Below, one piece after another: positions 9,720 through 15,347 of a stretch of 64,000 nucleotides of DNA. The DNA lies in assembly GCF_002224245.2 (NCBI RefSeq), contig NZ_NKHK02000006.1, positions 1 through 64,000 of the forward strand, read 5' to 3'. Both the position numbers and the translations under genes were made by a program. The notes beneath the pieces are model-generated. The model did not search any database and had not been told where the DNA came from. It saw nothing but the letters and a program-made list of their open reading frames with translations. Numbering within the stretch: the stretch's first letter is position 1; each line of letters opens with the position of its first letter. This DNA is from Moraxella sp. VT-16-12. Its GTDB lineage: Bacteria; Pseudomonadota; Gammaproteobacteria; Pseudomonadales; Moraxellaceae.

Positions 9720-9895
9720 GACTGCTCCATGATGTGAGTGTTGGGGGCTTATTGTAACAAAAAATGATGATTTTACCATTTTTATTTTGGGTTTTGAGTG
9801 GTTTTAAAAGCTGATGACTGCCAGTAAAGGCATGATGACGATGTTTGGGGCTTTTTATGTTAAAATGGTCAAGGTTTTTCTTGATTTTAGATGTT

Positions 9896-10786
9896 ATGAC
9901 TGCACCAGTTTTAAAGCACCACACCTTTAAGGACAAATTTATTGCATGGCTACATTTGACACGTTTTGACAAACCAATTGGCACAGAACTGCTACTTTAT
10001 CCGACCTTGTGGGCGTTATTTTTGGCAAACGTTGGGTTTGGGAGACTACCGAGTGTCGCTCATGTGGTGATTTTTGCGATGGGGGCAGTACTCATGCGTG
10101 CCTCAGGTTGTGCCATCAATGATTTTGCTGACCGCAAAGTAGATGGGCAAGTCAAACGCACCAAATCTCGCCCCTTGGCAGACGGACGATTGTCAGCAAA
10201 AACAGCAGTTTTGACTTTTGTTGGGTTGTCGCTTTTGGCAGCAAGTTTGCTTGTGTTTTTGCCCGTACAGGTGTTTTATTGGTCGCTCATTGCGGTGGTG
10301 CTTGCCTTTATTTATCCATTTATGAAACGTTATACCCACCTGCCTCAAGTGGTGCTGGCAATGGCGTTTGGGTGGGCGGTGCCAATGGCGTATGTGGCGA
10401 CCATTGGTAAGGTGGATGTTTGGGGCTGGCTGGTGTTTGGGGCGTATATGTGTTGGACGGTGGCGTATGACACTCAATACGCCATGTGTGATAGGGATGA
10501 TGACATAAGAATTGGTGTCAAATCTACTGCCATTTTATTTGGTCGACTGGATGTGGTCATCATCATGATGTTGCAGGCGTGTTTTGTGGGAATGATGGCG
10601 GTGGTGTTGTGGCATTATTTTAATGGTTGGGCGGTGTTAGGCATATTACCTGTGGTAGCAATGGTCATTCATCAGTATCATTTGATTAAACATAAAGAAC
10701 GTCTCAGCTGTTTTAGTGCCTTTCGTCAAAATGCGTGGGTGGGGCGGTATATGTTGCTGTTGGTGGTTGGTTGCTGTTTGTTTTAA
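9896..10786 (+). CDS. ubiA: 4-hydroxybenzoate octaprenyltransferase
   Basis: UbiA attaches the polyprenyl chain to 4-hydroxybenzoate in ubiquinone synthesis, within the inner membrane. Both aspartate-rich motifs are present: [20 protein letters not shown] (first) and [17 protein letters not shown] (second), separated by hydrophobic helices; about eight or nine membrane spans can be read. The start at 9896 (MTAPVLK) gives 296 residues, the usual size; an upstream in-frame ATG at 9845 adds an unlikely extension. No ubiC lies next to it. The polyprenyl donor would be made by the ispB product encoded near 29214. Confidence 0.93.
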
Positions 10787-10842
10787 CTTTTAGTAGTAAG
10801 CAATTCGGTTTTTATTGGTTTTTGGAAAAATGACCCAAAGAG

Positions 10843-11646
10843 TCAAATTCCATTTTGTAGCGATTTTATTTCAAATAAGTTAATTTTATCTATTTTATCT
10901 GGATGAACAACTATTCTTAATTGCGCTGGATATTTAAATCTTGTTTCACTAATTCTAAATGTCCATAGCATTATTTTTAATAACTCTTCATCAGTAATAT
11001 TTTTATGTTCTTTTATCCGAGTAATGCCAGAGCCAAATATTGGAACCGATACACTTCTTTGAGCATAAACTGCATTGATTTCGTCCCAAAATTTAATCAA
11101 AAACTCCAAATACTCCGGCATTGTTAGAACTGCTTGATTTAAATTATTAAATTTAGCAAAAGCAGTTATTAAGTATTCATCATTATATAAACAAACTGTG
11201 CCAATTTTATATTTTTGTTTTTTTCCATCAAGACGGCTTGTATTTTTTTCTAAAATATTTTCATCTCTAAATTTGTATTTATTAATGTAGCTATCTAATT
11301 CATCAACAGTTTGATTAATTATTTTTTCAATAAAAATACCATTTAAAGAAGCTTTTGAAATAATTTCATTATCTACTTTTGTATCAAAGTACTCATTAAA
11401 TGGAATGGCTTTCAAATCATCTTGAACAAAGATATCTCCAGTTACTATGGAAATAGTTGTATTTTCAATATAAAGATTAATTTTTTTCCATTTTGAGACA
11501 TATATCCATAATCCTATATAAAATAAAAAGGAAAATGTAATTAATCCAATAGGATAATAGATTTTTTCTTTTAATGGTTGATTGTCAATAAATAAAACTA
11601 TTAAACCAAATATTGTAGAGAAGGCAGAGAAATAGCTCCAAAACAT
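10843..11646 (-). CDS. Thoeris-like effector: two membrane helices plus macro domain (ThsA, type II form)
   Basis: 267 residues. Two hydrophobic helices occupy about residues 3-22 and 30-52, followed by a soluble region read as the ThsA-type macro domain (VPIFGSGITRIKEH, then AVYAQRSVSVP and a C-terminal RIVVHP). In type II Thoeris a TIR protein makes a histidine-ADP-ribose signal upon phage infection and a membrane-anchored macro protein of just this layout binds it and kills or arrests the cell. The gene downstream of the TIR gene on the same strand (gap 95 bases) supports the pairing. The insert is much more AT-rich than the flanking ubiA and mnmA, a sign of transfer. Domain naming rests on recall of the family (formerly DUF6430), not on a search. 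Confidence 0.72.
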   Translation of the reverse strand: MFWSYFSAFSTIFGLIVLFIDNQPLKEKIYYPIGLITFSFLFYIGLWIYVSKWKKINLYIENTTISIVTGDIFVQDDLKAIPFNEYFDTKVDNEIISKASLNGIFIEKIINQTVDELDSYINKYKFRDENILEKNTSRLDGKKQKYKIGTVCLYNDEYLITAFAKFNNLNQAVLTMPEYLEFLIKFWDEINAVYAQRSVSVPIFGSGITRIKEHKNITDEELLKIMLWTFRISETRFKYPAQLRIVVHPDKIDKINLFEIKSLQNGI

Positions 11647-11741
11647 TTTTCTTAAATTAGCATCAAAAAACGAACTTTCATTTATTATTCTCTAAAATAA
11701 AAAAGGAAGTTATTTCATAGAAATACTCCCCCTAACTTCAC

Positions 11742-12308
11742 TTATCTATAAAAGTAAATTCCACTATCACGTTTATTTTGAACGGTAAAATTGCTATTAT
11801 TCAATGCTTTTCGAATAGTCTCTTTTTTCATTGGGATATGCAATGTTGGTACATTTTCCATTAACTCACGAAACCTGGGTAAATTATCCCACAATGATTT
11901 AATTTTATTATTTAAATCTGTTTGTTGTGAGTTTAATAATGATGACTCATCTGAATAATCTGGATAAACCACAATAACAGGCAAACCTTTCGTTCCAATA
12001 CCATATTCAATTTCTTCGCGCAATGCTCTTGAATTTAAGGTTCTTTCACTCAAAAATAAAATGACATTTTTAGATACGCTTAATCGTTGATGAAGTCTAG
12101 GTTTTAATGTTCCCTCCTAATCACTACCATCACGCACATTGTAAGTTGCATCATGTGCATTAATGAAAGGAAAAGAGTTGTCTGCTGCTTTCCAAGCTTT
12201 CAATAAATTGTAAAAACAAAAATCTTTAGTAGCATGTGCTTTTAAATTGCTTTCACTAAAAGGCTCTTTGACATAAAATGCAGAATAATTTTTGGTTCTG
12301 TTGCTCAT
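11742..12308 (-). pseudogene. TIR-domain protein of the Thoeris-like module (ThsB), interrupted by an in-frame amber codon
   Basis: Reading from ATG 12308, 63 codons run to a TAG at 12117-12119, after VRDGSD. The very same frame then continues without a further stop for 124 codons to 11742, giving a continuous 188-codon frame with one TAG. The part just after the stop reads EGTLKPRL and then KNVILFLSERT and SRALREEIEYGI, the typical TIR core with its catalytic Glu. The family normally has Trp at the stop position, and TGG to TAG is a single change. Thus no shift occurred, only a nonsense mutation (or a base-call error). The N-terminal piece lacks the catalytic Glu; the C-terminal piece could restart only from TTG at 12053. 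As it stands the TIR enzyme should not be made. Confidence 0.8.
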
Positions 12309-12389
12309 ATAGAAATCTCTCTAATTAAAGTTGTATGAATAAAAATATTGATTTTATGTGTTACACATAATTAATGAATATTAATGAAT

Positions 12390-13535
12390 TTAACCCACTG
12401 TTACATTACAACTATCAATGACACCGCCACCCAAGCACACTTCACCATCATAAAACACCACCGACTGCCCCAAAGTAACCGCTCTTTGTGGCTCATCAAA
12501 GACCACACGCACTTTGTCATCATCATGGTAAATGGTGCAGGTTTGGTCGCTTTGGCGGTAGCGGGTTTTGGCAGTAAGTTTAATGCCATCAGCAGGCGGG
12601 CTAACAACCCAGTCCAGTTTGTAAGCGGTGAGCTCAGTGCTTTGTAACATGGGGTGGTCATGTCCTTGCCCAACAATTAAGCGATTATTCACCAAATCTT
12701 TATGCAAAACAAACCACGGCTCTTCGGGGCGATTTGCCACACCGCCAATGCCAATGCCGCCACGCTGACCGATGGTGTAGTACATCAAACCGTCATGCGT
12801 GCCTAATTTTAGACCATCATCACTATAAATGTCGCCTTGTTTGGCAGGCAGATAGGTTTGTAAAAAGTCCTTAAATTTACGCTCACCAATAAAGCAAATG
12901 CCTGTACTGTCCTTTTTTTTGGCAGTAGCAAGCCCATGTTTTTCGGCAATGGCACGCACGTCTTGTTTTTCAAGTTCGCCCACAGGAAATAAAGTTTTGG
13001 CGATTTTTTCACCACTTACTGCGTGTAAAAAGTAACTTTGGTCTTTGTTATTGTCTAGCCCCCGCAACAAACACGCTTTACCATCTTGTTCAAAGCCACG
13101 CCGTGCATAATGTCCTGTGGCGATATAGTCTGCCCCAAGGTTTAAAGCATAATCCAAAAAGGCTTTAAATTTGACTTCTTTGTTGCACAAAATATCAGGG
13201 TTTGGCGTGCGACCTGATTCATATTCTTCCAAAAAATGCTCAAAGACATTATCCCAATACTCCGCCGAAAAATTGGCGGTATGAAGTGTGATACCAATAC
13301 TGTCCGCCACCGCTTGTGCATCAGCCAAATCAGTCATGGCGGTGCAATATTCGGTGCCGTCATCTTCTTCCCAGTTTTTCATGAACAAGCCTTCTACATC
13401 AAAGCCTGCTTCTTTTAATAAAACAGCAGATACAGAACTGTCCACGCCACCAGACATACCCACGATGACTTTGATGTCTTTGGGGGGTTTATTCAGGCTG
13501 GTGGCAACATCGGCAAGGGTAAAGGCTTGGGTCAT
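12390..13535 (-). CDS. mnmA: tRNA-specific 2-thiouridylase MnmA
   Basis: MnmA makes the 2-thio group on wobble uridine 34 of Lys, Glu and Gln tRNAs, taking sulfur from the Tus relay. The PP-loop SGGVDSS near residue 25 binds ATP, and the two catalytic cysteines are in DILCNKE and [10 protein letters not shown]. The start at 13535 (MTQAFTL) matches the family; the frame extends 34 codons further upstream but those residues overlap the marR promoter region. 381 residues. It borders the AT-rich Thoeris-like insert on its 3' side. Confidence 0.95.
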
Positions 13536-13621
13536 AAGATGGCTCTTTGTGGGTATTTTAAACTTAAAATTATATAGGCATGGTGGTGCATTTTGCAAGT
13601 AAACAGGTAGCAATAATTTTC

Positions 13622-15011: not shown

Positions 15012-15083
15012 TGTCTTTGGTGCTCATTGATGGAAAAAGATTAAGATGATACACTATGATAAATGATTGTTTGGGGATGGTTG

Positions 15084-15347
15084 ATGTTAAGAATTGGTCA
15101 AGGTTTGGATGTTCATGCTTTTACACAGGGTGATTTTGTGACGCTAGGTGGTGTGCGTATTCCCCACACACAAGGCATCAAAGCCCATTCAGATGGTGAT
15201 GTGTTATTGCACGCTTTGGCGGACGCACTTTTGGGGGCGTTGGCACTGGGCGATATTGGTCAGCACTTTCCTGATACTGACCCTGCTTTTAAGGGCACGG
15301 ACAGTAAAGTTTTATTAAAACAGGTTTATGAATTGGTACAAATTTAG
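15084..15347 (+). pseudogene. ispF: Half-length 2-C-methyl-D-erythritol 2,4-cyclodiphosphate synthase (ispF, 3' truncated)
   Basis: The first about 83 residues match IspF closely: [11 protein letters not shown] with the zinc ligands Asp and His, [18 protein letters not shown] with the third ligand, and [12 protein letters not shown]. After [14 protein letters not shown] the frame ends at TAG, where an intact enzyme has about 75 more residues, including the CMP-binding and Lys/Glu segments. I checked the following 100 bases in other frames and found no continuation. IspF of the MEP pathway is essential in most bacteria, so an intact copy must exist elsewhere. The fragment is therefore a remnant of duplication or rearrangement. 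Confidence 0.8.

What the first reader, a model, noticed from the sequence alone, without database searches (positions are those of the whole stretch)
12117..12119. Single in-frame amber codon inactivates the TIR gene
After VRDGSD the frame reads TAG and then goes on in the same frame for 124 codons with clean TIR sequence. Where the stop stands, relatives should have Trp, so one G to A change (TGG to TAG) explains it. The effector gene is intact while the signal-producing enzyme is cut before its catalytic Glu. A toxic effector with a dead trigger, amber suppression, or restart at TTG 12053 are all possible outcomes.
Basis: seen in the sequence. Interest (0 to 1): 0.75.

Follow-up and report, generated by a model that had tools for sequence, protein, structure and literature searches.

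The report
Doubly broken bacterial anti-phage defence operon
A two-gene anti-phage alarm system (type II Thoeris) acquired by this bacterium is broken in both genes, by a stop codon in the sensor and a frame slip at the start of the effector, so it is most likely a recently dead remnant, which is an ordinary fate for defence genes.

Summary
The TIR gene (thsB, 12308..11742, - strand) has an in-frame TAG at codon 64 (12119..12117) and then continues in frame for 124 clean codons. In 19 of 19 relatives, and in two homologues with solved structures, that residue is Trp.

The claim that the effector is intact does not hold. Relatives' thsA starts M-(x)-K-V-x-F-x-D. The window has that start (ATG 11681, MKVRF), but the frame slips by one base inside a six-T run (11670..11665), and that reading ends as MKVRFLMLI*. 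The TM-macro frame is open only in another frame, whose first ATG (11646) lies past the conserved N-terminus.

So both genes of a type II Thoeris pair carry one lesion each. No other thsB or thsA exists in the genome, and no amber-suppressor tRNA was found. None of 45 conserved genes on the same contig is broken, which argues against assembly error. Otherwise 47 of 48 invariant TIR residues are kept, so the decay is recent. The pair is AT-rich, absent from 21 sibling species, and sits in a small cargo spot between ubiA and mnmA.

Verdict: a young pseudogenised Thoeris II system. It is ordinary and of low novelty.

The parts
11742..12308 (-). thsB: TIR-domain sensor/synthase gene of type II Thoeris, 188-codon frame, interrupted
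   Evidence: PF08937 and PADLOC ThsB matches; 19 homologues at 45-66% identity; PDB 3hyn E 9.6e-73 and 9uv0 (ThsB) E 2.8e-68
12117..12119 (-). In-frame amber codon TAG at thsB codon 64; relatives have Trp
12051..12053 (-). TTG, first in-frame start-type codon after the stop; would give a 103-aa C-terminal piece; no Shine-Dalgarno signal
11679..11681 (-). ATG at the place of the thsA start in relatives (MKVRF...)
   Evidence: comparison with ten relatives: L010, L031, L032, L194-L196, L198-L200, L008
11665..11670 (-). Run of six T on the - strand where the thsA frame slips by one base against all relatives
   Evidence: MKVRF lies in one frame and FFDANLRKMFW... in another (three-frame translation); relatives are open through M-x-K-V-x-F-x-D
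10843..11670 (-). thsA: two transmembrane helices plus macro domain, frame open from here to the stop; first in-frame ATG at 11646 (267 aa)
   Evidence: PF20016 ThsA_Macro E 1.9e-62; PADLOC ThsA E 2.6e-110; PDB 8v6s/8v6q ThsA macro domains E 2e-84; ORF list
11644..11646 (-). ATG from which a shortened ThsA without the conserved N-terminal K-V-x-F-x-D could start; weak ribosome-binding signal
10831..10845 (-). Terminator-like hairpin at the end of thsA (weak; 1 found, 0.6 expected)
9893..10786 (+). ubiA, left flank of the cargo spot
   Evidence: same order lysA-ubiA-cargo-mnmA in four sibling species
12390..13538 (-). mnmA, right flank of the cargo spot

Best explanation
This is a recently inactivated type II Thoeris anti-phage system (TIR synthase thsB plus TM-macro effector thsA), gained by horizontal transfer into the ubiA-mnmA interval of a genome that is probably Moraxella. 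In the working system ThsB senses infection and turns NAD+ into an adenine-dinucleotide/ADPR signal, which binds the ThsA macro domain and clusters its membrane helices, killing the infected cell (published or proposed for relatives, PMC11204291; not shown here). In this genome thsB ends at codon 64, before the catalytic region. The thsA reading frame breaks a few codons after its start. Neither full-length protein should be made, so the locus no longer defends.
For: Stop at codon 64 where 19/19 relatives have Trp; the conserved EE at residues 98-99 lies downstream. Frame break in thsA: K-V of the M-x-K-V-x-F-x-D start is invariant in 9/9 aligned relatives and is encoded here in a different frame from the rest. 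No other ThsB_TIR or ThsA_Macro in the genome. No CUA anticodon among 41 tRNA genes. Assembly control: 0 of 45 genes (45.9 kb, 127 homopolymers of 6 or more) shared with a sibling genome are broken; the two flagged were stops upstream of the true ATG. If lesions were errors at the 95% upper rate, two or more in 1.44 kb has P about 0.004. Young decay: 47 of the other 48 invariant TIR columns kept. Foreign origin: GC 27% against 42% for the contig; no match in 21 sibling species; sibling species carry other cargo at the same spot.
Against: No raw reads and no second strain of the species could be examined, so each lesion rests on one assembly. A shortened ThsA from ATG 11646 would keep both membrane helices and the macro domain and might retain some activity. 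The very good conservation outside the two lesions would also fit continued use by some form of recoding.
Confidence: 0.86

Rival explanations
1. One or both lesions are sequencing or assembly errors and the strain has an intact Thoeris II operon.
For: The slip lies in a homopolymer, the commonest place for indel errors; apart from two sites both genes look fully conserved. A nearly unannotated plasmid record (pKP13, MZ690486) shows a thsBA pair broken in pieces, possibly sequencing error.
Against: 0 of 45 conserved genes on the same contig broken, with 127 homopolymers of 6 or more read in frame; assembly 99.99% complete with 0% contamination. The stop is a substitution outside any homopolymer.
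Confidence: 0.08
2. Half-dead operon: thsB is dead but a shortened ThsA (267 aa from ATG 11646) is made and keeps some function, for example answering a signal from elsewhere.
For: ORF of 267 aa with both helices and the macro domain; macro residues well kept.
Against: It loses the conserved N-terminal leader; weak ribosome-binding signal (-2.4 kcal/mol, at background); no second ThsB in the genome to supply a signal.
Confidence: 0.04
3. Programmed recoding keeps the system expressed at a low level: read-through of the TAG plus a -1 frameshift at U_UUU_UUG in thsA.
For: The thsA break sits on a heptamer of the classical slippery form, in the right frame and direction (sequence); good conservation downstream.
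Against: Loss of one T from a longer run makes this heptamer automatically, so it is not independent evidence; no relative has either the stop or the slip; no suppressor tRNA.
Confidence: 0.02

Closest known systems
Type II Thoeris with TM-macro ThsA (E. coli and Serratia/Klebsiella/Citrobacter plasmid systems; EcThsA/PcThsA macro structures 8v6q/8v6s, PMC11204291)
   Same: Same two genes in the same order, thsB then thsA about 50 bp apart; ThsA macro domain E 2e-84 to the solved ones; 56.7% identity of ThsA and 59.9% of ThsB to a Serratia plasmid copy
   Different: Both genes are interrupted here; chromosomal between ubiA and mnmA rather than on a plasmid
3hyn (putative signal transduction protein) and 9uv0 (ThsB) TIR structures
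   Same: Full-length homologues of the thsB frame (E 9.6e-73 and 2.8e-68), both with W-E at the stop position
   Different: Uninterrupted
Defence-system pseudogenes as described in the PADLOC server paper (PMC9252829)
   Same: Multi-gene defence locus with nonsense or frameshift lesions; the paper says many putative defence genes are annotated as pseudogenes and may be remnants of inactivated systems
   Different: A particular new case, with a separate lesion in each gene

Membership tests
Type II (TM-macro) Thoeris | ThsB TIR-like gene | tested here: met
   PF08937 E 7.7e-24; PADLOC ThsB E 5.2e-71, read across the stop
Type II (TM-macro) Thoeris | Adjacent ThsA with transmembrane helices and macro domain | tested here: met
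   PF20016 E 1.9e-62; PADLOC ThsA E 2.6e-110; gene follows thsB on the same strand
Type II (TM-macro) Thoeris | Both reading frames open, so that ThsB and ThsA are made | tested here: not met
   TAG at thsB codon 64; frame break at 11670..11665 in thsA. It is therefore filed as a pseudogenised member, not a working one
Type II (TM-macro) Thoeris | Conserved catalytic-region Glu in the TIR | tested here: met
   Invariant E98-E99 present in the DNA but downstream of the stop; which of the two is catalytic was not resolved here
Type II (TM-macro) Thoeris | Signal production and phage protection | not testable with these tools
   Needs wet-lab work
Pseudogene (nonsense/frameshift) | Stop or frame break at a place where homologues are open | tested here: met
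Pseudogene (nonsense/frameshift) | Lesion not explained by assembly error | tested here: inconclusive
   Control 0/45 genes broken, but the reads themselves were not available
Amber-recoded gene | Suppressor tRNA with CUA anticodon or conserved stop among relatives | tested here: not met
   No CUA anticodon among the tRNA genes found; all relatives have Trp

The most novel reading that the evidence does not exclude
The two interruptions form a silent-but-retrievable state. Rare amber read-through and -1 frameshifting (or slippage back in the T run) would let a few cells in the population make a working Thoeris system, as bet-hedging against its cost.
Probability: 0.02. Interest if true: 0.6.

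Novelty: new member of a known kind. Interest (0 to 1): 0.17.

Why it matters
It corrects the annotation: this genome should not be counted as having an intact effector or a working Thoeris II system, and PADLOC-type tools would see only a lone ThsA. As a case it illustrates the gain and quick loss of a defence module at a small exchange spot in the genus. Defence pseudogenes are already known to be common (PMC9252829), so the general interest is small.

Tried and rejected
(1) Intact effector: rejected after comparing the thsA start with ten relatives. (2) Suppressor tRNA: 41 tRNA genes found and read by ARAGORN, none with CUA. (3) Restart at TTG 12053, or near the TAGGAGGGA sequence created at the stop: no Shine-Dalgarno before TTG 12053. 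The only start-like codon close behind TAGGAGG is an ATT in another frame that stops after three codons. (4) A second ThsB or ThsA elsewhere in the genome: none. (5) Same-species or nearly identical DNA: exact pattern around the stop absent from viral contigs; plasmid DNA matches only 67-71%; no phage record. (6) First assembly control used too little of the sibling genome (17 genes); enlarged to 1.9 Mb. Two apparent broken genes were stops upstream of the true ATG. (8) Phase variation: a six-T run is short for slippage-based switching (general knowledge) and a TAG substitution cannot switch, so not pursued.

Full report
What was claimed.

Observation. On the - strand the frame 12308..11742 reads MSNRTKNYSAFYVKEPF...NVRDGSD, TAG, EGTLKPRLHQRL...YFYR and then a stop: 188 codons with one internal TAG at codon 64. 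Read across the stop it matches Pfam ThsB_TIR (E 7.7e-24) and PADLOC ThsB over its whole length (E 5.2e-71). A scan of genome contigs gave 19 relatives at 45-66% identity. All 19 have Trp at the stop position, as do the homologues with solved structures 3hyn and 9uv0. The more distant EcThsB2 (8v6t) has no Trp there, so the Trp is a feature of this subfamily. The observation and the Trp guess are confirmed.

The effector. The next gene is a TM-macro ThsA (PF20016 E 1.9e-62, PADLOC E 2.6e-110; macro domain E 2e-84 to 8v6s), so the pair is type II Thoeris. It is not intact. In relatives from Chryseobacterium, Serratia, Citrobacter, Klebsiella and E. coli plasmids, and other genera of the same family, ThsA begins M-(x)-K-V-x-F-x-D; K and V are invariant in the nine aligned. 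The window has ATG AAA GTT CG followed by six T at the homologous place. From that ATG (11681) translation runs MKVRFLMLI and stops, while FFDANLRKMFW... lies in another frame. The frame therefore slips by one base inside the T run 11670..11665. The 267-aa ORF that gave the impression of an intact gene starts at ATG 11646, past the conserved N-terminus, with a ribosome-binding signal no better than background.

Is it an assembly error? The reads were not available. As a control, 155 kb of the same contig was compared with 1.9 Mb of a sibling species. Of 45 conserved genes (45.9 kb, 127 homopolymers of six or more bases), none is broken; two flagged cases were stops upstream of the true start. 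At the 95% upper bound of that rate, two lesions in 1.44 kb has P about 0.004. Real lesions are the better reading.

Can the cell read through? All 41 tRNA genes found have standard anticodons and none is CUA. The first possible restart in thsB, TTG 12053, has no Shine-Dalgarno signal and would lose the half that holds 24 of the 49 invariant columns. The genome has no other ThsB or ThsA. The thsA break falls on U_UUU_UUG, a classical -1 slippery heptamer, but loss of one T from a longer run produces that sequence automatically and no relative has it, so this is weak evidence for recoding.

Age and origin. Outside codon 64 the TIR keeps 47 of 48 columns that are invariant in relatives, so the decay is recent. 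The pair is 27% G+C against 42% for the contig and about 46% for its neighbours. It is absent from the 21 sibling species searched, and four genomes of 349 in the family, this one included, have a match. In four siblings the order lysA-ubiA-cargo-mnmA is kept, with a different cargo each time: a WG-repeat-like protein, a small membrane protein, a PIN-domain-like protein, a TonB-receptor-like gene (descriptions by eye). The locus is therefore a small exchange spot. That the genus is Moraxella is an inference from family size, genome size and gene content; no tool named it.

Mechanism. For the working system, published work on relatives (PMC11204291) shows that ThsB-type TIRs make ADPR and base-exchange dinucleotides from NAD+ and that ThsA macro domains bind them and oligomerise; membrane damage by the clustered helices is proposed there. 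None of this was tested here. The loss step is shown in sequence: neither full-length protein can be made by ordinary translation. Which lesion came first cannot be told. A dead synthase with a live effector would not be harmful in itself, because the effector is thought to need the signal, so the lesions need no special compensation.

Verdict. A young, doubly broken type II Thoeris locus. Defence pseudogenes with nonsense or frameshift lesions are already recognised as common (PMC9252829). Interest is low.

Noticed in passing
window 15063-15347 (+): A 3'-truncated ispF copy (86 of 155 Pfam positions) next to gcvP; an intact ispF lies on the same contig at 94107-94568. Probably a partial duplication or transfer remnant.
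   Followed up: partly
window 10786-12390 and L203, L205, L206, L208: The ubiA-mnmA interval is an exchange spot in the genus: each of five species with ubiA-mnmA synteny carries a different small cargo there.
   Followed up: partly
window 11710-11718 (-): A strong Shine-Dalgarno (-9.3 kcal/mol) precedes ATG AAA TAA, a two-codon open frame between thsB and thsA, in frame with the macro reading. Meaning unknown.
   Followed up: no
L032, L033, L201 (plasmid records): Other type II Thoeris pairs also look incomplete: an E. coli plasmid copy of thsA with tet(M) rather than thsB annotated upstream, a Klebsiella grimontii plasmid thsA frame without a normal start, and a Klebsiella plasmid record with both genes in pieces. 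The last may be sequencing error.
   Followed up: partly
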